Assembly: GCA_028713225.1 (NCBI GenBank)
Contig: JAQTOS010000001.1
Coordinates: 124,001-188,000, forward strand
Direction of reading: 5' to 3'
DNA length: 64,000 bases
Source of the DNA: Candidatus Altimarinota bacterium
Lineage (GTDB): Bacteria > Patescibacteriota > Gracilibacteria > BD1-5 > UBA6164
The notes under the pieces are model-generated. The model did not search any database. It saw only the letters and a program-made list of their open reading frames with translations, and was not told where the DNA came from. The position numbers were made by a program, and so were the translations under genes. Shown here one piece after another: positions 26,154 through 59,068 of the stretch; within the stretch, counting starts at the first letter, position 1; every line of letters starts with the position of its first letter.

Positions 26154-26182
26154 TATAAATTTAAGTGTAAAAAACAAGTCAA
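26154..26182 (-). promoter_or_regulatory. Promoter of the S41 protease gene
   Basis: On the minus strand TTGACT (26177-26182), 17 bases, TTTATA (26154-26159), giving a leader of about 40 bases. Confidence 0.5.
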
Positions 26183-26396: not shown

Positions 26397-26425
26397 TTGA
26401 AAATAAATAAATAATATGATAAAGT
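26397..26425 (+). promoter_or_regulatory. Promoter of the 26462-28354 operon
   Basis: TTGAAA (26397-26402), a 17-base spacer and TAAAGT (26420-26425), 36 bases before the first ATG. Confidence 0.5.
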
Positions 26426-26461
26426 ATAAAAAGAAATATATAATTTGTAATTTTTAAAAAT

Positions 26462-26773: not shown

Positions 26774-26778
26774 AAAAT

Positions 26779-26967: not shown

Positions 26968-26971
26968 ACTT

Positions 26972-28354
26972 ATGAAAAATTTTAAAGTAGAATTATCAAA
27001 GGATTCAAAAAAATATACCTTTGTACTCAAAGCTAATTATGAAATTGAATTAAAAGAAAAATTTCATAAAGAATGATATAATATATTATCTATTTCAGAA
27101 ATAGATAATATTGAGGTGTCTGGACAAGCTTTCTATTTTGAAATTTTTGTAAATTCAGAATTAAAAAAATGAACAATAAATTCGTCAGACATATTTAAAG
27201 CCTATTTAAAGCTTAGAAAAGAATTAGGATATAGAGTTAGATATATTTATGATAAATTAGATGCTACAGAAGAAGAAAAGATAGAATTAGTAAACAAATT
27301 AGAAAAACAATTTGATTTATTTAATATAAATAATGTTTCTTTAAAAAAAGAAGAAATTATTACAAAAAAAGAAGAAAATAAAAATGATGATAATAAACAA
27401 GAAAATTTTTATTTAAAAAAAGAATTAGATGAATCATATAATGTTATAGGCTTTGTTTTAATAAAATTAAAAAATATTATAGATTGAAAAATAGATGAAA
27501 ATATAAGTATAGAACAAAAACAAAAATTAACAGATGTTTATAATAATTTAATAAAAGTAAAAACTTCAACTAATATTTCTAAATTAAAAGAAGTGTGAGA
27601 AGTTGCTTTAAAAAGAATATGAGAAATAGAATTAAGAGCTTTAGAATCTAAAAAAACTAAAGAATTTGAACAAGTTTTACAAGAAACAAATAAATTACTT
27701 AAAAAAGTTGGATCTAAAACTCAATTTATAGAAAAAGAAAAAGATTTATGATATATTTTGGAGAATTTATGAAATAATATAAAAGAATTTTTTATAAATA
27801 ATTTTAAATCAGAAAAAGTACAAAAACAAGAATTAGATAAAGAATCTTATTATTATCTAAAAAATGAGACTTTATTAAAAAGATATTTGAAATTAAAACA
27901 AGAATTAGATAAAGAAAAGCTTCAAAATATAGGAAAATTTATTTTTGCTTTTAGTCCTGAAAATAAAGATTTTGTTATTAAATATAATATAAAACAAGCC
28001 TTAATTAATCAAAATATAGATTTACTTAAAGCTAAATTAAATAATAAATCATTTTCTTACACAAAAATAGTTAATACTTATGAAAAATGATTATGAAAAA
28101 TATTAAATATTTTTAATATATTAAAAAACTCAATATTTTATTTTATATTTTTATATTCAATATTTTTTATATTTTTTATAAGCTTTACTTATTATTTAAA
28201 TCTAGATTATAGTTTAAATTTAGCTACATTAAAATATATAATTTTACTTCTATTATTTTACTTTTATTTTACTTTTTCAAAGAATTTTACTCTTATTTTA
28301 TTAAATTCAATATTTTTCTGATTTTCAATTGTTATTTATTTAATTAATTTTTAA
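26972..28354 (+). CDS. Large helical protein with C-terminal membrane anchor
   Basis: A 460-aa protein. Residues 1-110 (SKDSKKYTFVLKANYEIELK; FHKEGYNILSISEID) recall the small N-terminal module of PilC/GspF-type pilus platform proteins, where a short beta segment is followed by a helix ending in xGxxxxSI. This is a visual similarity only. Residues 120-370 are Lys/Glu-rich with strong coiled-coil character. The C-terminus holds three or four hydrophobic helices (FYFIFLYSIFFIFFISFTYY; ATLKYIILLLLFYFYFTF). It may be an inner-membrane assembly or sensor protein. It ends at a strong hairpin. Confidence 0.65.
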
Positions 28355-33604: not shown

Positions 33605-34726
33605 ATGAAATTAACAGATTTTGATTATGAGTTACCACAAGAGTTAATAGCCCAAACTCCAATTGAACCAAGAAGTGATTCTAGGCTTTTGGTGTTAGAT
33701 AAAAACTTTTGAGCAATAGAAGAAAAACAATTTTTCAACATAGAGGATTATTTAGGTGAAAATGATGTACTTGTTTTAAATAAAACTCGTGTTATAAATG
33801 CTAGACTTAATTGAACTATAAGAGAAAAAGACACTATTTGCGAAATTTTTCTTCATAAACAAATAGCTACTGATACTTGGGATTGTCTTGTTTATCCAGG
33901 AAAAAAATTAAAAATTTGAGCAAAAATTGATTTTTATGATACTGATTTAAATTTTTGATTTAGTGAATGAAAACTGTCTGAATCCCAATCGAAGATTGGT
34001 TGAGTTTTTGAGCGAACTAAATTAAATAATTTAAATCCTATATTAATAGCCGAAATAGTTGATGTATCAGATTCAGGAAGAATAGTAAAATTCAATAAAT
34101 CATGATTAGAGTTTCTAGACATTGTAGACAAAGTTGGACAAATTCCGCTTCCGCCTTATATAAAGGAAAAATTAGAGAATTCTTCTAGATATCAGACAGT
34201 ATTTTCTGAGATAAATTGAAGTGTTGCGGCTCCTACAGCAGGTCTTCATTTCACAGAAGAATTACTTGAAAAACTTGAAAAAAAATGAGTAAAAATAGAA
34301 AAAGTTTTATTACATGTTTGACTTGGAACTTTTAAATGAGTTGAAACAGAAAATATTCTAGATCATAAAATGCATTCTGAATTTGCTGAAATTGAAGAAG
34401 ACACAGCAAAAAGACTTAATGAATATAAGAAACAAGGAAAAAGAATAATTGCAGTTTGAACAACTTCAGTTAGAACACTAGAGAGTTTTGGAAATCCAGA
34501 TAATACTTTGTCTTTTGGATCAAAAGAAACTGATATTTTTATATATCCAGGTTATACTTGGAAATTCGTAGATTCTATTATTACAAATTTTCACTTACCT
34601 AAATCAACCTTACTTATGCTTATATCAAGTTTTGCCTGAAAAGAAAAAGTAGATGAAGCTTATAAGTATGCTGTAGAAAATAAATTTAGATTTTTCTCAT
34701 TTGGTGATGCTATGTGGATAAAATAA
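33605..34726 (+). CDS. queA: S-adenosylmethionine:tRNA ribosyltransferase-isomerase
   Basis: A 373-aa enzyme that transfers the ribosyl moiety of SAM to preQ1 at the wobble base of GUN-anticodon tRNAs, forming epoxyqueuosine. Typical elements are [20 protein letters not shown] at the N-terminus, [16 protein letters not shown] near residue 60, [15 protein letters not shown] near 215, HVGLGTFKGVE, and [19 protein letters not shown] near the end. The length is normal. It is transcribed alone and its stop overlaps the GC-rich palindrome at 34725. Confidence 0.96.
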
Positions 34727-34766
34727 AAAATGTAGTGAACGCGGGCCCGCGTTCACTACATTTTTT
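34725..34766. repeat. GC-rich perfect palindrome, repeat copy 1 (terminator-like)
   Basis: A 42-base perfect palindrome with no loop, centred on GCGGGCCCGC. Its arms include TGTAGTGAACGCGGG and are flanked by six A and six T. It separates the convergent queA and PH-domain genes. A second copy with the same core is at 57444-57483. It stands out from the A/T-rich surroundings. Confidence 0.9.
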
Positions 34767-34774
34767 ATTAGAAA

Positions 34775-35958: not shown

Positions 35959-36009
35959 CTTCGCGGTCCCTTTTCAAGGGTGTTTATTTTAATTTATATA
36001 AATTTTTTT

Positions 36010-38145
36010 ATGGCAGATAAAACTCCGTTAAATAAAATAAGAAATATAGGTATTATTGCCCATATTGATGCTGGTAAAACAACAACTACTGAAAGAGTTT
36101 TGTTTTATACGGGTAAAATTCATAAAATCTGAGAAACTCACGATGGTGAAGGTACTATGGATTGGATGGAACAAGAAAAAGAAAGAGGTATTACTATTAC
36201 TTCAGCTGCAACTACTGCATTTTGGGGTGATCATAGAATAAATATCATCGATACTCCAGGTCACGTAGATTTTACTATTGAAGTAGAAAGATCTCTTAGA
36301 GTACTAGATGGTTGAGTTGCTGTATTTGATGCAAGTCAATGAGTAGAACCACAATCTGAAACTGTTTGGAAACAAGCAGATAAATATGGTGTTCCAAGAA
36401 TCGCATTTGTAAATAAAATGGATAAAACTGGTTGAGATTTTTTCATGACTATGGATTCTATCAAAAAAAGATTAGCTTGAAACAAAGTTGTAGCTATTCA
36501 ATTACCTATTGGTGCTGAATCTACTTTTGTTGGTATAGTAGATCTTATCACTCAAAAAGCATATCATTTTGAGGGTAATTCAGGTGAAAAAGTAACTGAA
36601 TGTCCTATTCCAGAAGATATGAAAGACGATGTTGAAGCATATAGAATGGAATTAATGGAAAAAGTAGCTGAACAAGATGAAGCTTTAATGGAAAAATATT
36701 TTGCAAATGGTGAATTATCAATAGAAGATATCAAAGCTGGTCTTAGAGCTGGTGTTTGTTCTACAAACTTATATGCAGTTATTTGTGGATCTGCTCTACA
36801 AAATATCTGAGTACAAATGATGATTGATGCTGCTGTAGATTATCTACCTTCTCCTATGGATGTTAATGGTGGTAAAGTTATAGTTATGGATGTTGATGAT
36901 AAAGAAAAAACTGAAGAAATTTCAATTTGAGATAATACTCCTCTTGCTGCTTTAGCATTTAAAGTTATGACTGATCCATTCGTAGGTAGACTAACTTTTA
37001 CTAGAGTTTATACTGGTACATTAAGAGCAGGTTCTTATGTTTACAATTCTGTTTCTGGTGAAAAAGAAAGAGTTGGTAGACTACTTGCTATGCATGCTAA
37101 TACTAGAGAAGAAATACAAGAAATCACTGCTGGTAATATATGAGCTGTAGTTTGATTAAAAGAAACTAAAACAGGTGATACACTTTGCGATATGAATAAA
37201 CATTTATTACTAGAAGCTATGGAATTTCCAGAACCAGTAATACATATTTCTGTAGAACCAAAAACAAAAGCTGATCAAGAAAAAATGGGTATGGCTCTTT
37301 CTAAACTAGCTGAAGAAGATCCATCATTCAGAGTTAGAACTGATGAAGAAACTGGACAAACTATTATCGCGGGTATGGGTGAATTACACTTAGATATCAT
37401 CGTTGATAGAATGAAAAGAGAATTTAAAGTTGAATGTAATGTTGGTGCTCCACAAGTTGCTTATAGAGAAACTATCAAAAATCCAGTTAAAGATGTTGAA
37501 GTTAAATACTCTAAACAAACTTGAGGTAGAGGTCAATTTGGACATGTTGTTATGACATTCGAAACTTATAAAGAAGCTGATGCAGATGATAATGGAGTTA
37601 AAAAAGTTAATAAATTTATCAATAAAATTATTGGTTGAATAGTTCCAAAAGAATATATACCATGAGTTGAAAAAGGGCTTGAAGCTGCTTATAAAAGAGG
37701 TTATATCGCAGGTTATCCTATGGTAGACGTAAAAGCTACGTTAACTTTCTGATCATATCATGATGTAGATTCATCTGAATTATCATTTAGAATCGCTGCT
37801 TCAAAAGCATTTAAAGAAGCTTGTAAAAAAGCTAGTCCTATTCTACTTGAACCAATAATGAAAGTAGAAGTAAATACTCCAGAAGAATATATGGGTGATG
37901 TACTTGGACAATTAAATTCAAAAAGAGGTAGAATTGAAGAAATGGGACAAAGAGGGCAAGCTAAAATTATTACTGCTCAAGTTCCACTTTCAGAAATGTT
38001 TGGTTACTCAACTGAATTAAGATCTGCTTCTCAAGGTAGAGCTACATATGCTATGGAATTTGATCATTATGACGAAGTTCCAACTCATATTGCAACAAAA
38101 GTTAGAGAAGATAGAGGTTTCAAATTAGAAGATGACGAAGATTAA
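36010..38145 (+). CDS. fusA: Translation elongation factor G
   Basis: A 711-aa GTPase that drives ribosomal translocation and recycling. The G domain shows [19 protein letters not shown] (G1), [15 protein letters not shown] (G3) and NKMDKTG (G4). Domains II-V follow with [14 protein letters not shown] and a C-terminal [14 protein letters not shown]. The length is normal. About 13 glycines are UGA, while most are GGT, a lower UGA share than in ordinary genes. It is transcribed alone, between a divergent promoter pair and a terminator; rpsL, rpsG and tuf are not beside it. Confidence 0.98.
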
Positions 38146-38254: not shown

Positions 38255-38890
38255 ATGAAATTTTGAAATTATGTACATACAACTTGAACTAAAAGTTTAA
38301 AAAAACAATTGCATCCAACTAAGCTTACTCAAATGATAAATTGACATAAACATTCTTGAGATGTTTCATCTTCTTTGAAATCAACAAAGGGTAAGAGATT
38401 GTGTTATTGGGATAGAGGACTTTGAGTTGAAGCTAAACTAAGAGTTCAAAATATACTTATGAAAAGAGATGAGTTAGAATATCTTAGATGAGATTATGTT
38501 GATACAGTTAACAATATTCTTGATTTTGATGTAAATAATATATTGGAAACAGAAACTTTTTGAATAATTGATTTTTCTAAAATTAAAGATGATTATTTGA
38601 AAAAAAGAAATATGGAATTTTTTATGATTTTAGATGATGCAAAAGAAATTAGTTTAAAAAAATTTAATAATAAAATTGGAGGAGAAACTCTTATTGTTAT
38701 TGAATATGTAGTTGATTGAAAATTAAAAGATTATAGAACAATACCATTGGCCATTTTATCAAATCTCTTACAGATAGAAGATAGGTCATATGAGCTTATT
38801 TTAAGACAATTTATGGCAAAATTCTGATATAAAATTAAGGAAGAATTAGAATGAAAAAAACATTACAGATGATTACAAAATGCTGCTTAG
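38255..38890 (+). CDS. Hypothetical basic protein
   Basis: A 211-aa soluble protein with a basic N-terminus (TKSLKKQLHPTKLTQMI; SLKSTKGKRLCYWDRG) and an acidic centre. The C-terminus is again basic (KKHYRGLQNAA). LIVIEYVVDGKLKDYRTI suggests a beta-hairpin core. It has no signal peptide, membrane helix or recognised motif. It has its own promoter and terminator and lies just upstream of the giant surface-protein gene. The stop is TAG. Confidence 0.6.
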
Positions 38891-38910
38891 AAATAAGCAG
38901 CATTTTTTTG
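38880..38910 (+). terminator. Terminator
   Basis: ATGCTGCTTA pairs with TAAGCAGCAT around GAAA, followed by seven T. The left arm overlaps the stop codon of the 211-aa gene. Confidence 0.93.
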
Positions 38911-39068: not shown

Positions 39069-42000
39069 ATGTGATATTCAAGAATACAAAAGTTTATTTC
39101 AGGAATTCTTATTTTTTCTCTACTTTTTTCTCTTACTTTTAGAGTTTCTTTTGAAGGCCTTTTAAATCAAGTTTTTGCTTGAGATACTAATGCTTACAAT
39201 ATAGTTTCAATAATTGTTCAAGACGATTTATATAATGCTTGAGTTTTTTCATCTGATGTAAAATCAGAAATTGATAGATATGCGGAAGATATACAAAAAA
39301 CTCTTCCAATGACAAAGGTTATTATTATCCCTACTAAAACAAGCGAAAATCCATATAATATAGCTTCTTTAAATGAGAAACTTTATTTTGAATGATATAA
39401 ATGAATAAAAGATTTAACAGGAGAATCAAAATTAATTTGATCTATTTTTGTTTGAAATATTCCACTTCCTGTTGTTTATGATGGACAAAATTCACAAAAA
39501 TCAGTTTTTCCTTATGTAGATTTTCAAGATAAGGCTTATATTTATAATACTTCTTCAAAAAAATACGAAAAAAATCAAAATAAAAAAGATAAATTACAGG
39601 CTGAAATTTGGCATTCATTTATTTCGCCAAATACTTGAGATAAATCTAAAGATGTTCAAGAATTAAAAGATTTCTTTGATAAAGATCATAATTATTATAC
39701 AAAAAGCTGAAATTTTTCTACTTCTACATTAGCTACAACTAAACCATACGTTTTTTATTTTGATGGGAAAAGAGAACAGGCTGCTATAAGTTATCAAAAT
39801 TATTTAGCTTATGTTAATTATTTACTTAATATAGAAGATATTTCTTATAATAGATTTTCTAAATATTTAGCAGATAAATTAGCTAAAAGTTATTTATGAA
39901 CTGCAAATTCTGAAATTGCATCAACTTTGGGAAGTTTAGGTCTTAATTTGGATTTATCATCTTATTCTAGTACTCCAGATTTTTCTACAGCTCCAGATAT
40001 TTCAACTCTTTCTGCTATTACTAAAACTATAAAAAGATTTGTAGAAATTTTTAATGAATCAGGACTTTCTGATATGAAAGCTTTTGTTCATAATGCTTGA
40101 AGATATAATTGAACAGGTTCTAATGTTTCAGTTGATATGGCTCCATATTTGATAACTCAATTGGATGAAATTTCAAGAGTAATGGTAAAAAATGCTAATA
40201 ATGATTTGGAAACAGAAATTGATAATTTAGTAAAAAATTGATTATCTAGAAATATTGCCATTCCAACACAAGCTACAACTCGAGTTTCAAATATTTTAAC
40301 TTGTGGTAATACTTATACAAATATACTTTTTGGTGAGCAAGCCAAAGATATCACTACAGCAGCTGATTGTAGTATTTATAGAGGGTCAAACGCTAATTCT
40401 TGAACTTTAGTTGAAGCAAATAGATGATTAAATGTAACTTGAAATGCTCAGGCTGATGCTTCTAGATGTAATAATCAAACTTCAGGATGGTGGGGAGGAA
40501 ATTCTCCTCTTAATTTAGATATGGCATCTATGAATACAGGACTTATGAAATTATGAACTCATGATTTGAATAAAGCAATTACACCATTATTTGATATATC
40601 TTGAGCAAGTAAAGAACTTGATAATTCTAAAACATTGTCTCCACTAAATTGTTTTGATAATAATTTTCTATTAAGTCAAAGAAAATCTATGGTTTGACAT
40701 TCAGGTTGTCAAACGACTTATCAAATTCCTATTAATTGAGAATCTCGAGTGAATTGGAATTGTTCAACGACAAATCAAACATTAGCTTATACAAAAAATT
40801 TCAACGATTTATATAAAGAATCTGTAACTACATCATCTGGATTTGTTTTTTGATGAAAAGTTTATTGATCTGGAAATGTTATAAATAAATGTACTTGACT
40901 TTCATGTGAGGATGGTGGACTTAAGATAGATTTCAAAAAAATCCCATCATATATAGAACATAAATCTCCAGATGCTCTAGAATTAAAGGACCAAACAAAA
41001 ACTATGACTTCTCCTAATTTACCTATCGATAAAGATAGATATATAGATTTTATAGGAGCAAAATGACAATATGACAAAATAAATTATCCTTATTTATATA
41101 GATTAACAGATGTTTCATCTGATTTAAGTTTACAATGAGTAAAAGATGTTTTAAAAAAATATTTAGATGCTAAATCTGTTGAGCTAAATTCTAAAATATC
41201 TTCAAATAATCCATGAAGTTTATCTGGAAACGATTTAAGTTTATATAATTTATTAAAAACTTGAAACTATCCAAGTCAAAGTGTGGATTTATACAAAGTT
41301 CTGGAAACAAAACCGGTGCAAACTATTGATATTTCTTGAGAGAAAAAAGATCTTTCTTATTTAGATACTTTAGTGTTTTCTCTTTATTGGTCTAAATTAA
41401 ATTCAGTTTCGGCTAAATATAAATTTGTTTTTGAAAATTATTTATCTGATCAATTTGGTGATAATAATTTGAAATTTCCTCTTCCATCAAATAAAAAAAT
41501 GTATGAAATGGCATATATTTGATCTGAGTGAGATGCTAAAAATATGTATATAAATATAGATCCAAGTGGAAAAGCGGAAAATCCATATGGAGATATTATT
41601 GCGAATAATTTGAGTTTAAATAATAATTTATTATCAACAAATCTAAATTGAAAAATAAATGAAGCTGATAATAATAAATGTGCTCCGCCAGATTGAGTTC
41701 CTCTTCGGCAATGGCTTCCTGCTGTTATGTGTCGGTTAAAGACACTTCTTCCACCAAAAATTAAAATTAGTGCAGGTTCTTGCTGATGAAATTCTGAAAT
41801 GTCATCAGACGATCAAATTAATTTAGAGGCTTGTAATAAAGATGATAATAAAAATTGAATAAATGATTGTCAGGAGAAAATAGCTTCAGTTAAACTTGCT
41901 GCACCAGGAGATAGAATTTGATATAATTCTGTTTGAAATCTTGAAGCTAGCTTACTTGATGAATATTCTAGAATTGTATGATTTGATAATCTTACAAATG

Positions 42001-45000
42001 TTAATTTTGATTTAACTAGAGTCGATATTCCTAGAGATCCAAGTAAAGAATTATCTGATATAAATTATAATACTTTTTATGATAAGCGAGCTCCTTTTTG
42101 AAGTGAATTGAATAATTCGCTAGTTTTAGAGGACTTAAAGAAATATATTAGCTTCACTCCTTGAAATATAAAAGCAAATAATTGAAAAGCTATAGCAAAT
42201 TTTGTGTCGAAAGATAAAGAAGTAAAACTTTATTTTAGAGCTTCTATTTCTATAAAAGATGCTAATTGAAATAATGCAATTGATATAAAATCAAATGATT
42301 TAAATATATCAGTTTCTTCAAATGTATTTTGAGTTTCTTCTTATAATTTAGCCGGATGAGTTATTTCTGGATGAGCTTCATGAGTAAAAGCTTCAGATAG
42401 GGCAAATTTCTTTATAATTGATTGAGGAAAAACAAGTGTAGCAGATTTGAAATCAGCTTTATGACAAGCATCAACAGCAAGAGAAAAATATATTTTCGAC
42501 TTAAAAAATACAGATAAAACATGAAAAGCTGTTCCTCTTTCTTATCCATTAAAAGTGGCTATTTCAAAATGAGAAAAACCTTATATAAATACTTTTAATG
42601 TTCCACCAATTGGTTCTTATTATTCTTCTATTGCATCAATAAAAGATGCTGGAACTTATACTTTTGAAATTACAGATAATTCTGGATTTAGAATAACAAA
42701 AGAAGTTGAAGTTATGCCAGATGTTCCAGCGGAATTGAGAGTAAATATGTCTACAAATATTGCTGAAATTTGAGGTTCAAAAACAAATCATTTACTTAGT
42801 CTTTATGATAGATTCTGAAATCTAAATTCAGGAGAGTTGTATAATATTAATGCTTCAATTAATTGAGATTTTACTTTTGGTGATGGGAAAAAAGACGCTA
42901 CTATAAATACTTTTGAATGATATAAAACATTTACTTTGAAATCACCAGATTCTACTTGAAATTCAGAAATTAAATTCACTTTTAATGATAGTATAAATAA
43001 TATAAAACTTGAAAAAACAGCAAATATAAAAGCAATTTCATGAGTAAATGCTGTTTTAAATATAGAAAATCCAGATAATATCAAAGTATGAAATAATACT
43101 TATAAATATACAATTAAAATTACAGATTTAGACGGGAATTTATTAAATAATTTCAATTCTAAAGCTTATTTAAATATTCCTAAAATTTATGGAAAAAGTT
43201 TAGATAGTTTTGTTTCTATACAAAATTGAGTTTGAAATTGAAGTTTTACTACAGCAACTGCAGCTTCAAAAGTAGTAAATCTTACTTTTAATGTTGAATG
43301 ATTAAAAAATTCTATTGTAAAACCAATAACAATTCATCCAGACACCGCTTTGAAAATAGATTTATCTTTATCTAATTCTAAACTTGAAGCAAGAGCAGAT
43401 TCAACTAGCATTTTGACAGCAGAGCTAAAAGATAGATATGGAAATCTTGTTTTTGATGATAATTCTACATCTCTAGCCCTAGAAATTCCAGCTGATTATA
43501 AACATATTATAAAAGTTTGAGATTTTCTAAAAACTGCTAGTTCAGGTAAAGTTAATTTTGTATTAAATGCGACTGATATTCCATGAATAGCATTTATGAA
43601 AGTAAGTTCAAATCCAAATCTTTCGCTAAATAGTTTTTCAGTTCCTGGACAAGCTGGGTTTTTGAAGACGGAATTAAATTCTTCTATTTTTAAAACTTCT
43701 GCTTGATTAAGCCCTACTTGAGATAAATTTTTCTATGAACTTGATAATATTCATTATAGATCTAAATATAATTCTCTTGATGTAATGAAAGCAAGTAATG
43801 ATTATAAAGTTCTTGGAGAAGCAAGTAAAATATTTATCACAAAATTATGGAATGCAACGAATAATATACTTACTCATTGAGTTTGAGAAAATGCTATAAG
43901 AATTGATACTTATTATTTCTGGAATAAACAAAAAATTGAAGGGAAAAAATATAATTCACTTTATACTACACTTCTTTGAGGAGAATATGGTGATATTAAT
44001 ACTCCAGATTATTTGGCTTCTGGAATGCTTTTTAATAAAAATAATAGATCGCTAGCAGTTACGACTCTGCTTTCATCAAATAAAAATTCAGAACAAAAAT
44101 TAGTACAAGTTAGTCCAACTTGAAAAATTGGACTCATGTCTACAACAGATTTATCTCAAGATGTGAGCTTGAATTATAATAATTCTTCTAGAAGACTTTC
44201 TTTTGATTTATATAATGATGCTCTTAGTTCAGTAGTTTGAAAAATTTATTTAAAATGAAACGATACAGTTGTTGAATCTGTTTGTGATAAAGCTGATGTT
44301 TCTTCTTGTATTTCAGACAATGAAATATCACAACTGACAGCAAAAACTATAAAAACTAACTATGCTTTTATTTTAGACGGGGATAAAATAGTTTTGAAAG
44401 ATGAGCTTTGAAATACAGTTTTTTCTATATCAAAAGATTTTACTATAGCAAATAATGGAGGATTTAATATTTCTGTTGATAATACAAATACTTCTGATTA
44501 TTTGAAACTTAATTTAGAAGATTCTTTTGGTGAAACTGTTTGAAATATTGGAATTAAATTGTCATGATTTTCTACAGATTTAAGTCGTGATGAATCACTT
44601 TTCCAAACAAAAATAGACACATTAAATAATACAGTTTTTGTATATTTACAATCAAATAATTATGGATGAAAATTTTCATATACTTGAAATTCTACTTATG
44701 GAAATAAATGATTGTATATTTATTATAATGATCCTTTTGCTGATAATCAAACGGCTAGTAAAACAATGTGAGAAAGAGAAGATACTTCTATTGCAAATTA
44801 TGAGCAAAGAGCTTGAATAGGATGGGAATGAGAAAATAAATCATTGCTTTTATTTGCTGCGGGTGAAAATGTATGAGATGCAACAAAATATAATCAAACT
44901 CTTTCAGTTATAAATTTGTGAGACCCTGTTATTGCATTAGCAAAAGTAGATCCAAAATTACCAGGAACAAGTGAAAACCGTAATTTTGATTCAAGTATAG

Positions 45001-48000
45001 GAAAGCTTCTTTGAAAATGAGTAAAATCTTATGATGTTTTTGATTATAATAATGATCAAGTAGATGATATTATTTATTTGACTGCAGATAATTTCATAAG
45101 ACTTTTAGAGTGAACAAACACTTCTGAAAAATACAAAGATATGTGAAATTTGTTTTATATAAAAGATTTAGATAATAAATTTCCGATAATAACTTGAGAT
45201 TTTACAAACGATGGATTTGATGATATTTTCTTTGTAAATACAGATGGAAAACCTGTTTTATTAAACAACTATAAAAAACATTTTACTAGACTAGAATTGG
45301 AATGACAATTTGCACTAAACGGGAGAATATCTCAAGTTTCAGGATTTGATATGAATCATGATGGAAAAATGGATATTACTACACTTGATGAAAATGGGGA
45401 TATAAATGTATTTTATGGATGATGAACTGATAATAATCCAAGTTTTGAAAAGAAACATATAGATTCTGGATATTGATTGAAACTAGATTCTACACCGAGA
45501 AATGATAATTCGGCTATTTATTATAATGGTCTTTATCAATTGCCATCAGATTCTAATGCTGACTTTTTGAAATCATCAGAAGCATTAAATGCAAATGTTA
45601 AATCTTTTAATGATTCTGTATGAAATTGATCTTCTGAATCTTTAACAAGTCCATCAAAATGAGAATTTAATGAATCTCTTTTGAATAATATGCTTTTCTT
45701 TAAAGTTAATTATGATCCAGAATTTTCTGATGCTACTTTGACTCAAGACCAAAATAAACAATCTATTTTTAATGCCTTGCCTCAGTCTGCTATTTGAGAT
45801 TCTTCTAGTGTTTCTACAGATATTTCTTCAGCAAATAATTCTTTCAAGGATTTTACTTCTTATCTAGATCAAACAAATTCAGGAAAAACAAATTATGATT
45901 ATTCTACAAATACTTCTAAATTAACAACATTTTTGAGAAGTGAATATTCAGATACTCAAGGGATAAATATCAAAAAAACTTATACAGACAAAAACTGAGG
46001 ATTTTTAAAAGCTTGAGATCAAGTTTCAGTAAAAGTAGAAATTACAAATACTTCTAGTTCTATAACTAAAAATATTGCATATCTTGATAAAGTTCCAGCT
46101 CCACTATCACTTTGAGCGGAAACAAATTATAAATTTAGTGTTTGATGAGATTATAAAAGCATTAGTCCAAAAAATCCACCAGATTGAGCACCATTTTCTT
46201 TTATGATAGATCATTTTGACTTGCTTGCAGGACAAACGGCTGTTTTTGAATATAATTTGGAAACTATGCCTTTTGATTTTGGCTCTCTTCAAACTGGATT
46301 ATTTGAAAAATGAGAACTTTGAGATGATATATATTGAGACATATTACTTAAAAAATCAAATCAAAACTGTGCTGAAACTAATGCTATATATAGATCTACA
46401 GATGCTAAAACTTATGAAAAAGGAGAACAAACTCCAATTTGTAATGAAAATAAAGCAAAATTACCAACAGAAGCTGAAAAAAATGCAACAGATAAAGATG
46501 GAAATTGAACACCAGATTATATAGATGCTTTGAAATTAAACAATGGACAAAATACAGATTTTACAAAATATGCTAAAGATGCTTTAAATCAAGTAAATTT
46601 TGATAAAGACTGAGATGGTATTCCGGATACTTATGACTTAAGTCCAAATTATAATGAAGATTCAGGAAATATTTTAGATTGATTAAATAATTTTACTGCC
46701 AATTCTATGGCTACTCTTGATGGAGTAGAAAATTTTATTAATTGACTAGGTTGTTGATTTGGATGAGCTTGATGTATAGCTAGTCCACTTAATCGGGCTC
46801 CACTTGCACCAGGGAATGACCCAACTATTTTTGGTTGTCCTGCTTGAGATGGTTTAAATGTATGAGAATGAATACCGGTTTTTTCTATGTTGACTATGCA
46901 ATGGTATTGACCTATTTGTTGACCTTCTGTTTGGCCACCAAGTCCTTTGGGATTAGGTTGTTCTTCTTTGTGAGCTGGTTGACGGCTTGGAACATCAAAT
47001 CCTATAAATCAATTTAGATTTTTTATTACTCCTACTATAACTGGAGGTATTTGAATTGCTGCTTGTTTTGGTGGACCTGCAATAGTTGCTTGAAATTCTG
47101 TACCTAAATGAGTTTCTCCAGTTACTCCAGGTTGAAACTGTATAGTTGCAGCCAAAAAATCAAATATGTGTAAAGATGACTGATCTGATTGAGATGTTTG
47201 ATCTATAGGTTATAGTCAAGTATCAGGTTCTTCTTATTCAGTTATAAATGGTAATTGTAAGGATTCTACTTGAAATACGGGTAAAACTCCAATTCTAGAT
47301 AACAAAACAGTTGCTGATTACCTAAATTATAAAAGAACAGGACAAAAATCTCCTAGCTTGTGAGCGAATGTAAATAATTTCTTTGGCTCTCTTTCAAATA
47401 ATAATAAATGGCATGTTTCAAATGGTCCACTTATTAGTTTAGGAGGAACTACTGCAACAGATAATGATATGGATTTATCTCTTAGTTTAGATGCTAATGC
47501 TGTTAAAAACGGAGGTTCTTATGCTGATATCGTAAAAATAGATTTAAAAAGAATTTTCCCATTTCCAGATTTTATAATGGAATGGTGGACTAGACAAATA
47601 GAAGAAATTGTTACTAAGTTGACTGATTGGCCAACAATTTTTGTAATACTTCCAGATTTTTCTTGAATTATTGATAGTTGATGGTCTGATTTTTTTGCAA
47701 ATGTACAAAAAAATTATGATAAATGATTAGCTATAGATACAGCAAAAGATGCAAAAATAGATAATGAAACTAAGACTTTACAAAAAGATTATGATTCTAA
47801 GTGTAGTGATGATAAATCTAAATACACAACAGAATGTATAGCAAAACTTCAGAAAATAAAAAATAAAGAAAATTCTAAATATACTTCAGGACCAGCACAA
47901 GCTTCTGGAATAAGACAAGTTTATGAATTTTTAGGAAATCTTCCTATGATTTCAATACTTCCAGAAAAAATATATATTTCTATTCCATGGATTGATGGTG

Positions 48001-51000
48001 TTACTATTGATAAAGCAATAAGAGATTTTAAATTAACTCAAGCTCAATGGACTGCTGAAGTAGAACAAAAACAAAAAATGTGGTCAGGTGGATTAGAATG
48101 ATGTGATTCAAAAGCAACAGATAGCGCAAAAGCTCAATGTAAGAGAGATTATGCATATGCAAATTCTCTTTCTATAAATGCATGAGCTTTGACAAATTCT
48201 TTAAATCAAAATATTCAAGCTTTGGAAGAATATAAAAAACTTCCAGAAAAAGTAAATAAAATGATTTCTATAAAAGAAACTCGGCTTGGACAAATACTTT
48301 GTAATGTAGAAACTATTTCATATATTCTTGGATGACGGCTTTGAGAGAATGGTAAAAGATTTAAAGCTTGGGTTGAACTATATATTTTAGTTAAATCTAT
48401 ACTTAAATCTTGGCAATTAGTACTTGATGTTTTCTATGATTATGATGCTAGTTGTCATGATTGTAAAAACGAAAGATCTGATTTGCTTTACTGTGTATTT
48501 AAAATAATTTCTATGATTATTCCAAAAATACCAATAATTCAATTTCCAAAATGGCCAGATATAATAGTAGATTTGCATAATGTAAGAGCTAATTTAGCAA
48601 TTTCTTTACCAGATTTTGAATTCAAATTAAGACCAATTATTCTACCAACTTTACCTAGATTGTATTTACCAGACTTGCCAAGAGTAAATATAAACTTGCC
48701 AAGTATTCCAGTATTACCAATTATAGAATTACCAACTCTACCAGACTTACCAAGTTTGCCTACTGTTACTCTTCCAGATTTGCCACCACCACCAAAATTA
48801 CCTAAACTTTTTGCTTGAATAGAATGAGTTTTAAATATTTTGAAACTTATAACAAAAGTTATGTGTATTTTGAAGAAAAATCCTTTCGTTCCTGAATGGA
48901 GAGCGGGAGACCAAATAGCATTTTTAACTGAAAGATGAGGTTATTTACCTATAGATTTCTTGAGCGTTTCACTTCCTCAATTTTCTTATCCTTTCGTTGA
49001 TGCTATAAAAGTAACTTCATATGTAAATCTAGAATTTGAAGCTGATTTTATAACAGAATTTTCTAGAAATATGGTAATGCCATTAAATACTTTTACAAAT
49101 AATATAGTTCACACTTTTGATTCTAAAATTCCTGATTTAGATTTTAGATGAGCTATACCACAAAACATTGATGTAAATGCTTGATGACAAAATTCTTGAT
49201 TAAGACTTGATGGGCAAAAATTGAATTATAATGAGAAAAAATGAGTAAATTTATATGATTTTTCTCGTGTTATTGCTGCTAATATTTCTGCTTGAATTTC
49301 TTATATTATAGACCACAAAGATGCGACAGTTTCAAATAAAGAATTTTTAATTTTAATTAATAAAGATTTAGCTAAAAAATCTATAACAAGTGATCCAAGA
49401 ACAGATAAAATAAGAGATACTTGGGCAAGTGTAAATAATTATGATTATGCTAAAGAAGATTCTTTGATTAATGATTTAATAAAAAATAATACTGCTAAAT
49501 TTGATACTCTTAAATCTATACTACAAAATGAGATAAATGAGACAAGAAAGTTAAAAGAACAAATTAAATCAAATAAATTAACTATTGATTGAACAAATAA
49601 ATTGGCTTCAGCATCAATTTCTAGATTTGATTCGTATAATTCTAGTCTGTCTTCATTTAATGATAAAACTAAGAAATCTTTAGTTGATTTAGTAACTTAT
49701 GATAATGCTGAAAAAACAAGTTTACAAAGCGATGGAAAAGATTTGATAAATAGAGTTTCGTCAGATACTGCTGGTTTGAATACAAAATTATTAGATTCTG
49801 ACACTAGATATAAAGATATGATTTCTAAGGCAAAATCAAATTTACTTGCCTCTACTGCAACTTGAACAACATCTACTGGAGCGCTTGATTCTTCAGCTAA
49901 ATCTTGTAAAACATGAGTTACAAATACATATACTTATAAATGATTATATATTATAGAAAAAGATATAAGTTATAGATTATTTGACTACTTGTGAGAACTT
50001 ACTGGAAATGAAGTAACAAAAACTACTTGAATGGATGCAAATAATAAAGATTTAGTATATCAAGTTTGAGATGAACTTTATTTAAAAGATAATTTCAAAG
50101 CAACAAGTCCAACGAATTTCTATACTGGAAATCCAATAGTAATGAATGCTGATGATATAAAATCTTATAATAATACAGATACTCATTATGCAGCTGTAAA
50201 TGAATTTTCTGAAAACTTAGTAGATACAAATAATATAAATGTTAATTTCTTGCAATCATCAGATGATATAGCTAATTATAGATTAGAATTTTATAATATA
50301 GTTGATAAATTTGCGAATGATGATAATTCTAGATATTGGAATGGTTTATTTACAAAAAGGCAGATAGTTGATGCATTTAGGGATATTGATGACATTACAA
50401 TAGATTCTACAAATGAAACTTATACAACTAGAAAAAATTTAGCATATATAGATTATTATTCTCCAGGATTAAATGTAACACTTTCTACAAAAGAACTTAT
50501 TAGTATAAAAGATAAAATAGCGTCTAATACTCTTCTAAATATTAGTCAGGGGACAAAAATTTATTCTGGAAGAGATGATGTAAAAATATTTTATCATACA
50601 GATTTGGATGCTGCAGAACAATCTATAGTATTAAAAAAACATTCTAATATAAGTTTTGCTTGAAATATAATTGTCAGTTGACTTGAATGAGAAGCTTATT
50701 TGGAAGCTAAAAATTCTAAAATATATTCTGGAAATAAAATTGCATCTGTTATCGGATTACCAATTTTTCCTGGAGATACTATAAAATGAGATTCTATAAG
50801 TGAAGCTTCTCGCGTATCAATTAATTATTATGATGGATCTAATATAGATGTTTTATTTAACTCAATTTCTTCATATACTTTGTATGATTTGTGAGCATAT
50901 AATGAGAAATATTTGATTAGAGCTAAAGTAGATAATGATTTCTACTATTCTAAAATTACTTGATTCAAAGCTGGAAATTTCACAACTAGTTCTGCACAAG

Positions 51001-52088
51001 AAATAATGTCTCCTCAAGTTCAAGCTGATACAAAAGCTCCAGAACTTGATATGAATTCAGTTATAAAAGTTCCAGTTTATATATGAAAAACTATAGATCT
51101 TACAGATTCTTTATATGAAAATTCTGGAATTTCAGGATTAAAAGAAGTTTATATAGATTCTAATCTAAAAGTAGATTCTGATAACGATGGAAATCCTGCA
51201 AATGACAAAGATTCTATTTCTAAAGCGAATATTGAAGTTCAGCTAAGTTCTACTAGTTTGAAATTGAAAATACTTCCATTTGATAGTATTTTTACAAAAA
51301 ATATTAGACTTTACATGGTGGATAAGAATAACAATATTTGATATAAAGATTTAGTTTTAACTGTCTATTCTCCTATTCCAGAAGTAAAATGAAATAATAA
51401 TTCTACAATTTTTGGTGATTTAAATGAAGAAATCATATCAGAAAGAGTAGATTTGTATAGATATAGATGAGGAGTTCTAAAAAGACTTACAAAAGACTAT
51501 GTAAATACAAGTGCAACTTGAGCATTTCAATATAATTATAATAATTCTCAAGGTCTTGTATTAAAAGATACTTCAAATACTTGAGCAATTAAAGATATTG
51601 CAAATATAAATGAAACTACTTGAAAAATAGATTTGAAAGACAATAAATATTCTATCAGAATTATTCCAGCAAATTCTTCTGATAATGCTTACACAAATAT
51701 AGTTGTTTCTAATTGAAGTTTGGATTTGTACTATGAATATATAGTAGTTCCAAATGTTTGAGAGGTAAAATCTGTTGATGCCTTTGATAATATAAAAGAT
51801 AATTGAACTTACTTTAGGCTTACAGATAAGCGAAATTATTCAAGTTTTACTATTCCAACAACAGCTTCTTATAATCCTTGAGATTTAGCTGTCTATGATG
51901 TAGCCGATTCAAATAAAACTCCAATATTTGTAGTAACAAAAGATTGAAGAGTTTCAGTTAATAGAACTTGATTCAAAATTGTTTATGAAACATTTCAGGA
52001 TAGAATTGTTTATAAACTCGTAGATAATTCTTGAAAAGAAATAGCAAGAGTCTTACCAATATCTGAGGGAAATTTTATAATGAAATAA
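39069..52088 (+). CDS. Giant exported surface protein (4,339 aa)
   Basis: One uninterrupted frame of 4,340 codons when UGA is Gly, by far the largest gene here. Residues 12-30 (ISGILIFSLLFSLTF) are a signal peptide or anchor. Beta-rich, Ig/filamin-like segments cover about 1170-1430 (GTYTFEITDNSGFRITKE; LKDRYGNLVFDDNST). VCBS/FG-GAP-like repeats lie at about 1990-2120: DYNNDQVDD, DFTNDGFDD, DMNHDGKMD. Calcium-loop motifs DKDGNGTPDYID and DKDGDGIPD lie near 2475 and 2512. A Gly/Cys/Pro-rich stretch follows at about 2560-2700. Residues 3180-3250 are a run of LPxLP units. A Ser/Lys/Asp-rich helical part lies at about 3440-3600. No enzyme motif or C-terminal anchor is seen. It is likely a very long adhesin on the cell surface (inference). 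It has its own promoter and terminator. UGA makes up about half of the glycine codons counted at 40023-40920. Confidence 0.88.
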
Positions 52089-52099: not shown

Positions 52100-52133
52100 C
52101 AAAAAAGACTACTTAGAAATAAGTAGTCTTTTA
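52100..52133 (+). terminator. Terminator of the giant gene
   Basis: AAAAGACTACTTA pairs with TAAGTAGTCTTTT around GAAA, followed by TAT. It starts 12 bases after the TAA stop. Confidence 0.92.
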
Positions 52134-52226: not shown

Positions 52227-55200
52227 ATGAATAAAAACAAAATAAAGGCTTTCACATTAGTGGAATTAATAATAGTGATAACTATTCTGGCAATATTAGC
52301 TACTATAGGTTTTTTATCATATCAATGATATACTTCTGATGCTAGGGATTCATCAAGAATAACAAGCTTAAAAATAATACATGATTGATTAAGTATTTCA
52401 TATATACAAAAACAAATTTATCCTAGCCCAGACGAATATATAGATATATTATGAGTAGCAAAGCAATGATATATATGAGAAACAGTTTCAAAAACAATCA
52501 AATGAGCAGGATTTAAAGATCCTAAAGATTCTACTAATTATTTATATAACCTAGATTATACTTGAAAAAAAATTCAATTATGACGATTTTTAGAAAATAA
52601 TAATCAGCTACTACTTTCTAAAAATAATGATTTATTTATAAGTCAAGCATTTGCTTGAAATATAGATTATACAAATAGATATGTATATAGCGTATGAACT
52701 AAAGTAGGAATATTTTTAGATTCAACAACAAAAGCCCCATTAAATGAAAGAATATCTACTTGAAGTGTAGATTTAATAACAAATACAGGAACCTATATAG
52801 TGGTTTTTTCAAATAATAACTCAAACTCAGGGATAATATTAGGTTCAGGACAAAATTTACTTACAAATATATCAATAGTACAAAATTCTTGTGTACTTGG
52901 GAATACAGTAATAACAAGTGGGCAACAATTAAGTGCATATAATACAACTAGTGTAGCATATAATGCTACTTGTACCCCAATAACAAGAAGCTGTAGTAAT
53001 TGAATGCTATCTGGAGATATAAATTATAAGTATGATACTTGTTCTCTATCATCAGCTTTAAATTGTACAGTGACAACATATAGTTGATATACGGTTCCTG
53101 CTATAAACCATAATATTACACAAAATATAACTAAAAATATAACTTGATGAGTATCAGATATTTCAGTTTCTTGTGATAATGGAGCATTAACATATGGAAC
53201 AGAAAATACGAATTGTGATACAAACTATGTATTACAATGATGAATTTGTGCACAAGACTTATGTACATGAAGTGCTCCAGATTTCAGTATATCAAATTGA
53301 ACTCAGAAATTAAATGTATCTTGGATACATAATATAGTTCCATCACAATGTACATTTGTGTGCCAAGCTTGATATTATTGGAATACTACATCTTGTGCTC
53401 GAGCAAGTGCTTGATATATGGTAGCAACTCAGTGACAAATAACACAAACATCTTGTAATGTAAATAATCAATATCAAGATATAACGTGACAAACATCTTG
53501 TAAAACAGTAGATTCTGGGTACTACTCTACACCAGAATGAAATGTAGCACATACATGACAAACTCAATGTGAAGCAAATAATTATTGTTCTAACTGATTA
53601 AAAACATCTTGTCCTGTTTGAACAACAAGTCTAGCTGGCTCTACTAGTTCACGAGCTTGTATGATAAATCGATATACAGTAAGTTGAAGCTTCTGAACAA
53701 GTGCAAATTGAGCAACTATAAATGCATGTTGAAAAACAGCTACATTAGATACAAATTGAGCTTTTTCAATAACAGCAAATTACTGAACGACATGTAATAA
53801 TGCAGTAGCAACAAAAGCAAATTATACTTGTGTTACTACAAATAACTGACCAGCAAGCTTAATATCGAATATGACAAATATAGCTTGAAATTGTACAATA
53901 AATACACAAACTATATCTATTCCTAACTGATCTTGTACTCAAACACGGGATGATACTAATCAAGTTTGGGGGGCATGTACAAGTGGGATTTGTACAAATT
54001 GAGTAACTTGGAATTCTACAAATTGATGTACTCCTAAATATACTGTAACTTTTAATTCAAATTGATGAACAAGTATTTCTAGTCAGTTAATTTTAGAATG
54101 AGCAACTGCTACTACACCTACAAATCCAACAATAACAAACTATGGATTTGTATGATGGTATAGTGATTCTTGATTAACAAGTCTATATAATTTTTCTCAA
54201 GCTGTTACATCAAATATAACACTTTATGCAAAATGGAATTGTTCATTCAATGAATGTTTGGCTTATAATTATTATGTTATTAATTCAGATAACGCAGCTT
54301 TTCCAAATTGATGTAATAATTTATCTAATGCTACAACTAAATGTATATTAAAAATTGTTAGTTCAAACATATATGTAGCACCAGCTAGTACAGTAGATAA
54401 TGGTCAATTCTTAGATACATCATCAAAATATCTTTCTACTAATACAGAAGCTTGAATGATAGCTAATTCACCTACCACAACTTCAAATTTTATGAAAGAT
54501 GTATATTTATCTAGTCAATATAATTCCCAACAAGTGTCTAATCCTGGTTCTTCTATGACTCTTAATGATGATTTTGCTCCTAGGTATTGTAATAGTTTAT
54601 CAAAATTAGTACCAGTTCCTGGGTGAAAAAAACAATGGTATTTACCACCTAGAGATACTAATGGATTACTTGATATATCAAATAATAAAACAAAAACTGC
54701 TTTAACATCATCTCAATTATGATATACTTATTGGTCAAGTTATTTATATTCATATAGTACAACTCCTAATTTTTCTGCAACAAAATTATCTACATTTTCA
54801 AGTACGGTAAATTATCGTGCAAATTCCAGTGAATATGTTTTATGTATTGCATGACAAGATAGTCCAGATTATGTTGAAGATACAAATTCTCCATTCTTGT
54901 ACTGAAATATTAATAGGGTTGATAAATGTATTCGTTATTGATGAGGTACTATTACAATATGAACAAATACTTTTTGCAATAAATATATTCCGGATAGTAA
55001 TATAAAATATGTTTCAGATAAATCTCAAACTCTTTCATGTAGTACTTATAATTACACTAGTGTAGTTTGAACTATTAAAGCATTTTGAACAAGTGTTAAC
55101 GCAACATTAAATACTTGAGATCCTATAGCCACAACCAGTTGTAGTTCATATACTGGAGCGACAACACCTTATACATATGCAGTATGATTAGATTGATATT

Positions 55201-55466
55201 CTCATTATTTATATTCTTGAGTTTGAGGTTTACGATGAACATGTTTTAAACCTACATGATTTACTACTTATTGAGAATCATTTACTTTTTGGCTAGCTTG
55301 ATCTACTTTTAATTTTGCTAATTATTATTATGATAATTCTTATTTATATAGTGATTCAGCATGTACTGTGAAAGTTGACTGAGTTGCTTTATGATTAAAG
55401 ACTACTTGAACAAAACCAATTTGAATAACAAATACTGTTACAAAAGTATGACCATATAGTTATTAA
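52227..55466 (+). CDS. Pilin-like N-terminus fused to a large cysteine-rich adhesin-like region
   Basis: A 1,079-aa protein that begins MNKNKIKAFTLVELIIVITI, a type III prepilin signal with Phe+1 and Glu+5, but Ala instead of Gly before the cut. Residues 35-330 are Ser/Thr/Asn-rich. Residues 335-478 are cysteine-rich with spacing like GCC2/GCC3 growth-factor-receptor repeats (FVCQAGYYWNTTSC; KTSCPVGTTSLAG). Residues about 604-669 form one InlB-type B repeat (TVTFNSNGGTSISSQLI through YGFVGWYSDSG to NITLYAKW). Residues about 780-875 (RYCNSLSK; KKQWYLPPRDTNGLLDI; YTYWSSYLYS) resemble DUF1566/FISUMP domains. Tyr/Gly-rich end. Ordinary pilins are 120-250 aa, so this would make a pilus-anchored or tip adhesin (inference). 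Confidence 0.87.
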
Positions 55467-57445: not shown

Positions 57446-57483
57446 AAAAGTAGTGAACGCGGGCCCGCATTCACTACTTTTTT
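57444..57483. repeat. GC-rich palindrome, repeat copy 2 (terminator-like)
   Basis: A 40-base palindrome with one mismatch. It shares GTAGTGAACGCGGGCCCGC and, after one changed base, TTCACTAC with the copy at 34725-34766. It overlaps the stop codons of both convergent genes, yggT and lysS, and has A and T tracts at its ends. Confidence 0.9.
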
Positions 57484-59068
57484 ACTCAGCTATATTTTCT
57501 TTCTTACTTTTCATAAGTGGAAATAAAACAGTATCTCTTAGATTTTGTTGTCCTGTTAGTAGAGCAATAATTCTGTCTACTCACATTCCCCAACCTGATT
57601 GTGGAGGCATTCCGTATTCCATAGCAAGTACGAAATCGTTGTCTGGAGCTGTTGCTTCTTCATCTCAGTCGGCTAAATATTTAGCTTGAGCATCAAAGTT
57701 TGCTTGTTGTTCAATTGGATCTACAAGTTCACTATATGCTTTTACTACTTCCCAACCATTTATTACAAGTTGAAATTGTTCTACTATATTTGAATTTGTA
57801 TCACTTGCTCTTGCAAGAGGTTGCATAGTTTTTGGATAATTATAGACAAAAGCTGGTCAAGTTATACTTGGTCTTAAGGCTTTTTTGTATAAATAATCTA
57901 TCATCGTTGTAAGTCACATTTTTTCAATTCAGTCTATTTTTACTCAAGTTTTAGCAATATCATCTTTTAATTTTGCTTCATCTCAAGGATTATAAGTAGA
58001 AACATCTATTCAAGTAACTTTTTTTACTCATTCTATATAGTCTATTTTTTCCCATTCTGTTGAAAAATCTACTTCTTTTTCAACTCCATTTTTATCCATT
58101 ACATTTATTTTTGGATTTAGTTTTAATTCGTTGAAAATATGGTCAAACATTTCTTTTGTGAATCTCATATTATCTTCAAAATTCCAATAAACGCAGTAAT
58201 GTTCTATAGATGTAAATTCTTGCATATGACTTGGATCTGATCCTTCATTTCTGAATTGTTTTCCGATTTCAAAAACTCTTTCAAATCTACCAACTGTAGC
58301 TTTTTTTAAGTTTACTTCTGGGGCAATTCTTAAGTAAAAATCTTCTTCAAAATCATTGTGATGAGTTGTAAATGGTTTTGCAGCTGCTCATGAAGCAGAA
58401 TTTCCAAGCACTGGAGTTTCTATTTCTATAAAATCATTTTTGTCATAAAAATCTCTTATAGATTTCACAAATTTACTTCTAAGTAAAAATCTGTCGTAAG
58501 CTTCGTCATCGCTTATTAATTGCAAATATCTTTGTCTATAAATTGTTTCTTCATCTGATAATCCATGAAATTTTTCAGGAAGTGGTCTAATCGCTTTTGA
58601 TAAAACTTGAAATTCTTTTACAAAAAGTGTTAATTCTCAATGTTTAGTTAAAAATAAATCTCAAATTACTCAGACATAATCTCAAACTTGGCAAAATTTT
58701 TCAGCTATTTTGAATGCTGATTTTTCTTCTCAAGCTATTATTATATTTTCAACTATTTCTTTTCCAGTATTGAATATTACTTTATCTCTCATAAAAGAAA
58801 TTTGAATATCTCAAGAAAAATCTCTTATTTTTCCAAAAACTAGTTTTCACATTCATCTACTTGATATAATTCTACCAGCAGTTTTAAATTCTCAAACAGC
58901 TCAATTTTCCATTAAGAAATCAACATCTTTGTAGTTTTCAGATTTAGTTTCTATTATTTTAGAAATATCTTGTTTTCATCTATAATTATTCGCATAGCAA
59001 ATAATTCAAGCTTCCATCATTTCTTGTATTTTTTTTTGTCTATCTAGGGATTCTCTAGGATATTCCAT
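57482..59068 (-). CDS. lysS: Lysyl-tRNA synthetase, class II
   Basis: A 528-aa aminoacyl-tRNA synthetase. The N-terminal OB-fold anticodon-binding domain covers about residues 45-150 (KLVFGKIRDFSGDIQISFMR). The class II catalytic core has motif 2 FEIGKQFRNEGSDPSHMQEF near residue 270 and motif 3 SGWGMGVDRIIALLTGQQNL near the C-terminus. IETPVLGNSAS is motif 1. The length is normal for LysS. It is a single-gene unit, divergent from the sensor kinase and convergent with yggT. Confidence 0.96.

What the first reader, a model, noticed from the sequence alone, without database searches (positions are those of the whole stretch)
39069..52088. A single 4,339-codon surface-protein gene
One uninterrupted 13-kb frame, about a fifth of the window, in what is probably a small genome. 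It has a signal/anchor, Ig-like segments, VCBS-like repeats, calcium loops and a Leu-Pro repeat. A cell with few genes would keep such a protein only if surface contact is central to its life. It has its own promoter and terminator and is next to a second adhesin-like gene.
Basis: partly seen in the sequence, partly recalled or inferred. Interest (0 to 1): 0.78.

Follow-up and report, generated by a model that had tools for sequence, protein, structure and literature searches.

The report
Class-wide giant surface protein of Gracilibacteria
A 4,339-residue secreted protein, readable only when TGA is taken as glycine, turns out to be one copy of a giant gene that most members of an entire class of tiny, probably host-dependent bacteria carry exactly once, so it is probably a core part of their cell surface and not a private adhesin.

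Summary
The frame is real. 39069-52088 (+) encodes 4,339 aa, but only under genetic code 25 (171 in-frame TGA). At those TGA positions relatives that use the standard code carry Gly 37% of the time, against 34% at GGN-Gly and 5% elsewhere. It is not an assembly join. Colinear orthologues, mostly 3.8-5 kaa, occur in 93 of 99 relatives and 181 of 242 genomes of the class (Gracilibacteria, Peregrinibacteria and a further code-25 family), and in none of about 340 sampled genomes from other classes. The window's genome has one copy. The gene tree recovers the families tested. Strong hairpins bracket the gene.

The protein starts with a signal peptide. Next comes a head resembling family C25/caspase folds (the four C25 entries rank first of 999 chains aligned), then Ig-like and FG-GAP/VCBS modules. 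A Cys/Gly/Pro segment and a Leu-Pro core follow; this core is the most conserved part and matches nothing known. Several Peregrinibacteria-like orthologues carry C-terminal SLH repeats, which are cell-wall anchors. The window's lineage lacks them.

My reading: a single-copy giant exoprotein of the cell envelope, ancestrally SLH-anchored, more likely structural than a strain-specific adhesin. Function is inferred, not shown.

The parts
39069..52088 (+). Giant secreted protein gene, 4,339 codons, code 25 (171 TGA=Gly), single copy in the genome
39069..39179 (+). Signal peptide / N-terminal hydrophobic segment (aa 1-37); a strong hydrophobic stretch is also present in most orthologues
39180..41558 (+). 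N-terminal head (aa 38-830): caspase/gingipain (C25)-like alpha/beta fold with a large insertion; conserved His182, Cys434, Cys528, His631
   Evidence: AF2 mean pLDDT 78; VIA top four of 999 chains all C25, Z 8.8-7.8; Pfam C25 in an orthologue
42756..42998 (+). Ig-like (Invasin_D3/Big_1-type) segment, aa 1230-1310
45198..45377 (+). FG-GAP/VCBS-type repeat (aa 2044-2103, best of two stretches)
46491..46628 (+). TSP3/dockerin-like calcium-loop motifs (aa 2475-2520)
46746..47273 (+). Cys/Gly/Pro-rich conserved segment (aa 2560-2735), including a hydrophobic stretch
48321..48998 (+). Most conserved core (aa 3085-3310): hydrophobic helices, invariant Cys pair, Leu-Pro repeat (aa 3152-3245); no known relative
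51174..51206 (+). DSDNDGNPAND calcium-loop-like motif in the C-terminal beta region (aa 4036-4046)
38877..38906 (+). Terminator hairpin of the upstream gene, isolating the giant gene from it
52103..52132 (+). Terminator hairpin just after the giant gene
52227..55466 (+). Neighbour: prepilin-type N-terminus plus Listeria-Bacteroides repeat, 1,079 aa; one of about 13 related places in the genome

Best explanation
The gene encodes a giant, Sec-exported, single-copy exoprotein of the cell envelope, ancient in the class Gracilibacteria (sensu GTDB, with Peregrinibacteria). It is exported by its signal peptide. Disulfides and Ca2+ loops probably stiffen it into an extended multi-domain chain. Ancestrally it was held on the cell wall by C-terminal SLH repeats, which the window's lineage no longer has and must have replaced by another anchor. 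I think it is most likely a structural or contact-layer protein of the envelope (S-layer-like sheet or fibre coat) that most cells of the class need, through which episymbiotic or predatory cells meet their hosts. The C25-like head would serve as a binding or structural module rather than as an active protease. Shown: the frame, code, orthology, single copy, vertical inheritance, domain content and SLH repeats in orthologues. Inferred: export, anchoring in this species, structural role, host contact.
For: Colinear orthologues in 93/99 relatives and 181/242 genomes of the class, in no sampled genome outside the class, one per genome here, in a tree that recovers families f1, f2, f8 and f9 with support 1.00. 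An N-terminal hydrophobic signal is present in most copies. FG-GAP_3 occurs in 10/10 orthologues, with Invasin_D3, DUF11, TSP_3 and SLH in some. SLH repeats lie in the C-terminal region of 8 of the 22 full-length orthologues and in further loci. All 99 relatives encode SLH proteins, so the wall-binding system is present. There are no tandem DNA repeat arrays in the gene beyond a 34-bp one, unlike hypervariable repeat adhesins. Literature: giant surface proteins are thought to form the fibrous coat of Vampirococcus (PMC8080830), and a VCBS-repeat protein was detected in a groundwater Gracilibacteria proteome (PMC11452946).
Against: No localisation, abundance or lattice data exist here. The window's own protein has no SLH, sortase or lipobox anchor that I could recognise, so it could be released. 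At about 34-45% identity within the family, where LysRS has about 58-70%, it evolves faster than a housekeeping enzyme, as host-facing proteins do. Two whole families (f7, f10) of nearly complete genomes lack it, so it is not indispensable in the class.
Confidence: 0.5

Rival explanations
1. Dedicated host adhesin: the protein projects from the surface and its Ig-like, FG-GAP and calcium modules bind a host receptor during attachment or predation.
For: FG-GAP, Invasin_D3, DUF11 and TSP3 modules are typical of adhesion proteins. Cultured relatives are epibionts or predators with giant surface proteins (PMC8080830). The next gene is a large pilin-like protein.
Against: One colinear copy is kept across most of a class whose hosts must differ. 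The best conserved part is the Leu-Pro/Cys core and not the modular repeats. There are no long tandem repeats or local copies.
Confidence: 0.3
2. Surface protease or transpeptidase: the C25-like head is an active cysteine peptidase that processes surface or host proteins, the rest being a scaffold.
For: All four top structural matches are C25 peptidases, including the transpeptidase PorU. Pfam C25 reaches 23.5 bits in one orthologue. His182, His631, Cys434 and Cys528 are nearly invariant.
Against: Only the first half of the C25 profile aligns (53-157 of 374); the catalytic residues of C25 lie in the second half (own knowledge). No near-invariant Cys lies in aa 600-830, where the second half of the fold would place it. 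No PDB sequence match. Z 8.8 is modest.
Confidence: 0.1
3. Several genes or an assembly artefact read as one frame.
For: The standard code shows 171 stops; some MAG contigs are fragmented.
Against: Intact frames of about 4 kaa in standard-code orthologues on independent contigs, colinear conservation end to end, Gly conservation at TGA sites, flanking terminators with none inside.
Confidence: 0.02

Closest known systems
SLH-domain S-layer and surface proteins (Pfam PF00395)
   Same: Signal peptide, long multidomain exoprotein; several orthologues carry C-terminal SLH repeats
   Different: The window's protein lacks SLH; it is far larger than ordinary S-layer proteins; the Leu-Pro core and C25-like head are not part of that kind; no lattice shown
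Giant membrane/surface proteins of Vampirococcus lugosii and other Absconditicoccaceae (PMC8080830, PMC13059738)
   Same: Size (up to 4,163 aa), integrin/DUF11-type domains, code-25 sister lineage; one of them may be the orthologue
   Different: Those papers treat them as a set of separate giants of one organism; an orthologous class-wide family was not described in the text I could read; identity with the 4,163-aa protein not tested
Peptidase family C25 (gingipains, PorU), clan CD
   Same: Predicted fold of the N-terminal head; weak Pfam C25 match in an orthologue
   Different: No match in the window's protein at all; catalytic dyad not identifiable; about 450-residue insertion; no known type IX secretion link
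FG-GAP/VCBS-repeat and RTX-type adhesins
   Same: FG-GAP_3 repeats, calcium loops
   Different: No tandem repeat array and no local copies; a conserved unique core dominates
Giant extracellular proteins of Apilactobacillus kunkeei and Omnitrophota (PMC12863079, PMC10066038)
   Same: Very large exported proteins in small genomes of symbionts
   Different: No relation tested or claimed; here a single gene is conserved over a class

Membership tests
SLH-anchored S-layer/surface protein | N-terminal signal sequence | tested here: met
   Hydrophobic aa 9-24 after basic residues, V-F-A site; hydrophobic N-terminal stretch in most orthologues
SLH-anchored S-layer/surface protein | SLH repeats in the protein itself | tested here: not met
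   None in the window protein; present in 8 of 22 full-length orthologues and further loci
SLH-anchored S-layer/surface protein | Ordered surface lattice / dominant surface protein | not testable with these tools
   Needs microscopy and proteomics
Peptidase family C25 (clan CD) | Caspase/gingipain-like fold | tested here: inconclusive
   Four C25 entries rank first of 999 chains, Z 8.8-7.8, 132-148 residues aligned; Foldseek alone not significant
Peptidase family C25 (clan CD) | Match to the Pfam C25 model over cut-off | tested here: not met
   No match in the window protein; one orthologue at 23.5 bits in the genome search (cut-off 23) but 18.4 bits in the Pfam scan
Peptidase family C25 (clan CD) | Catalytic His-Cys dyad | tested here: inconclusive
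   Near-invariant His182, His631, Cys434, Cys528, but no near-invariant Cys in aa 600-830; no residue-level structural alignment available
FG-GAP/VCBS-containing surface protein | FG-GAP repeats over cut-off | tested here: met
   FG-GAP_3 30.8 bits, cut-off 26.9; 10/10 orthologues
RTX/Lap-type giant repeat adhesin | Long array of near-identical tandem repeats | tested here: not met
   Tandem Repeats Finder finds only a 34-bp array at the signal peptide
RTX/Lap-type giant repeat adhesin | Type I secretion signal and retention module | not tested
   No specific model run; a Sec-type signal is present instead
Vampirococcus 4,163-aa giant protein | Sequence orthology | not tested
   Sequence not held by name; orthologues do occur in another code-25 family (f13) of the class

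The most novel reading that the evidence does not exclude
A previously unnamed giant protein family is a defining, near-universal envelope component of a whole bacterial class of episymbionts and predators: one copy, vertically inherited, with a unique Cys/Leu-Pro core. It built their host-contact surface before the TGA recoding, switched from SLH anchoring to another anchor in Gracilibacteria, and was lost in two families.
Probability: 0.4. Interest if true: 0.78.

Novelty: new variant of a known kind. Interest (0 to 1): 0.6.

Why it matters
How these uncultured, host-dependent bacteria build the surface that meets their hosts is an open question, and their giant proteins are usually mentioned as a miscellaneous set. 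A single orthologous giant gene across the class gives one target (antibody, surface proteomics, cryo-ET) that is comparable between predatory Absconditabacteria, Gracilibacteria and Peregrinibacteria, with natural absences (families f7, f10) as controls. The core and head have no entry in Pfam, NCBIfam or PHROGs that I could match. Standard-code gene callers will shatter the gene in code-25 genomes, which may be why it was not noticed.

Tried and rejected
Gene neighbourhood as a clue to function: no universal partner gene; LysRS lies near the giant in several genera but looks incidental. PDB sequence searches with profiles of the head, the core and aa 2480-3480 gave nothing credible (best E 0.4, antibodies). 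The structure model of aa 2480-3480 was poor (pLDDT 62.5, pTM 0.39) and gave no useful fold match, so I draw nothing from it. Foldseek alone on the head: no hit at E <= 0.001. A C25 reference set from other Patescibacteria for a profile-profile test was not available: no C25 match in 240 genomes. Glycine-codon choice as an expression proxy: TGA share 0.55 in the giant, 0.21 in EF-G, 0.25-0.81 elsewhere: no sign of very high expression, not decisive. Chorismate mutase, anti-sigma, TrbJ, dynein and similar weak family hits rejected as chance. Missed distant homologues as the explanation for f7/f10: a second profile (A5) also found none there, though it did find the gene in G099 and G147. The promoter scan was at chance level. 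The tool's terminator scan missed both hairpins, which folding and a script then showed.

Full report
Observation. With the standard code the stretch 39069-52088 is full of TGA stops. With code 25 (TGA=Gly), which fits the whole window (86 ORFs of at least 80 aa against 24), it is a single frame of 4,339 codons with 171 TGA. Whether TGA really is glycine in this frame can be tested on relatives. In standard-code orthologues Gly occupies 36.6% of the aligned cells facing the window's TGA codons, 33.5% facing its GGN codons and 4.6% elsewhere; in code-25 orthologues the figures are 53.7%, 53.3% and 4.0%. The frame is therefore read with TGA as glycine. It is not created by an assembly join, because intact homologous frames lie on independent contigs of many other genomes, including standard-code genomes with no TGA at all and G+C from 24 to 55%.

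Transcription unit. A stable hairpin with a T-run closes the upstream gene (38877-38906, -15.5 kcal/mol, z -4.5) and another follows the giant gene (52103-52132, -15.4 kcal/mol, z -7.0); there are only seven such hairpins in the window, none inside the gene, and none in shuffles. The gene is probably transcribed alone. The promoter claim is unsupported: one consensus match, chance expectation 1.5.

Distribution. Searches with the protein found matches in 93 of 99 relatives with aa 1-2999 and 92 of 99 with aa 2801-4339. A profile of the head found 181 of 242 genomes of the class. In a draw of 380 genomes from the phylum, all 20 matches belonged to the same class and none to the roughly 340 others. 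The window's genome has one copy. Named records are Candidatus Gracilibacteria, Candidatus Altimarinus and Candidatus Peregrinibacteria. Families f7 and f10 (nearly complete genomes) lack it with two different profiles. The text of the Vampirococcus paper reports giant membrane proteins up to 4,163 aa, some with integrin and DUF11 domains (PMC8080830); whether one of these is the orthologue was not tested.

Colinearity and inheritance. Twenty-two full-length copies align end to end; most are 3.8-4.7 kaa, the extremes 3,279 and 7,861 aa. Conservation peaks at aa 3101-3300 (about 70% identity in the family, 64% in the order, 30-36% in the class). A maximum-likelihood tree on 2,568 columns recovers families f1, f2, f8 and f9, each with support 1.00, as expected for vertical inheritance. 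Codon position 2 differs least (0.35-0.37), position 3 most or equal (0.47-0.57), consistent with selection on the protein. LysRS, a control gene from the same window, has about 58-70% identity in the same family where the giant has 34-45%, so the giant changes faster than a housekeeping enzyme.

Anatomy. (i) aa 1-37: Sec-type signal; a hydrophobic N-terminal stretch is found in most orthologues. (ii) aa 38-830: an alpha/beta head, AF2 mean pLDDT 78 for aa 36-960 with much of the core above 85. Among the 999 PDB chains aligned by VIA, the first four are family C25 entries: RgpB 1cvr Z 8.8 (138 residues, 2.5 A), 4ief 8.4, Kgp 6i9a 8.3, PorU 6za2 7.8; caspases of the same clan follow at about 5.9. 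Foldseek alone was not significant. Independently, the Pfam C25 model rings over its cut-off in the head of one orthologue in the genome search (23.5 bits), and that stretch lies in a frame matching the giant's head profile at 2e-65; in the Pfam scan the same stretch scores 18.4 bits, below cut-off, but is the only family matched. Only profile positions 53-157 of 374 align, which is the first half. There is no near-invariant Cys in aa 600-830, where the second half of the fold would place a catalytic Cys, so I lean to a non-catalytic module; this is inference. (iii) aa 1230-1310 Invasin_D3/Ig-like, aa 2044-2103 FG-GAP_3, calcium-loop motifs at 925, 2094, 2475, 2512, 4036. (iv) aa 2560-2735: Cys/Gly/Pro-rich segment, many invariant positions. 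(v) aa 3085-3310: hydrophobic helices, the C3129-C3132 pair, and the Leu-Pro repeat with 18 Pro in 60 residues (shuffle maximum 11); no relative in Pfam, NCBIfam, PHROGs or the PDB. (vi) a C-terminal beta region.

SLH repeats in relatives. Pfam SLH rings inside the giant frame of G077, G081, G085, G090 and G093; a local model adds G087, G091, G098, L116, L118, L120 and L123. They lie in the C-terminal region, often two clear repeats with a third visible by eye, beyond the point where the window's protein ends in the alignment. Every one of 99 relatives has SLH proteins somewhere, the window's genome 14 matches, so the wall ligand system is present. On the tree, SLH is absent from the f1+f2+f5 clade and from f9: two losses or more, or repeated gain. 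This is the strongest anchor for the claim that the family belongs to the cell envelope.

Neighbours. There is no universal partner. The next gene, 52227-55466, has a prepilin-type N-terminus and a Listeria-Bacteroides repeat; about 13 related places exist in this genome and many in relatives. Large pseudopilins in multiple copies were already noted in a Gracilibacterium (PMC6851277). This multi-copy family, not the giant, looks like the variable contact repertoire.

How it most likely works. Exported by Sec, the chain folds outside the cell into a string of modules stiffened by calcium and disulfides; in SLH-bearing lineages it is held at the wall by its C-terminus. Single copy, colinearity over a class and conservation concentrated in a unique core argue for a structural job (layer or fibre coat), through which contact with hosts happens; the modular parts may bind partners. 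I give 0.5 to this, 0.3 to a dedicated adhesin, 0.1 to an active protease; the rest is open. A VCBS-repeat protein was detected in a Gracilibacteria metaproteome (PMC11452946), which may or may not be this family.

Novelty. Giant surface proteins in these bacteria are known as a kind. A single orthologous family spanning the class, with a C25-like head, an unclassified core and SLH repeats in part of the tree, was not described in the papers I could search; subscription papers were not searched.

Noticed in passing
window 52227-55466: Neighbouring gene is a 1,079-aa pilin-like protein; about 12 further places in the same genome match it, several of them 57-64% identical over the first 220-400 aa, so a large pilin-like family has expanded here.
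   Followed up: partly
window 26000-27000: Cumulative GC skew has its minimum here and genes switch from mostly minus to mostly plus strand, next to a 13-20% G+C stretch (26-31 kb): possible replication origin region.
   Followed up: no
window 35980-38145: EF-G uses TGA for only 21% of its glycines (GGT preferred), most other genes 40-80%: highly expressed genes may avoid TGA.
   Followed up: no
window 34722-34769: Perfect 22-bp inverted repeat between the convergent queuosine-synthesis gene and a bPH_2 gene, probably a two-way terminator.
   Followed up: no
G078:C6 (L049, L050): Orthologue with 7,861 codons, nearly twice the usual size.
   Followed up: no
G080:C21: A 7,295-aa open frame with SLH domains in a family (f7) that lacks the giant protein; possible replacement, not tested.
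   Followed up: no
G032:C37; L092 and L093: One contig carries two identical inverted copies of the gene: probably a palindromic assembly artefact.
   Followed up: no
window 57482-59068: LysRS gene lies within about 2-9 kb of the giant gene in several genera of the family (e.g. G002, G008, G010, G014, G026, G028, G034).
   Followed up: partly
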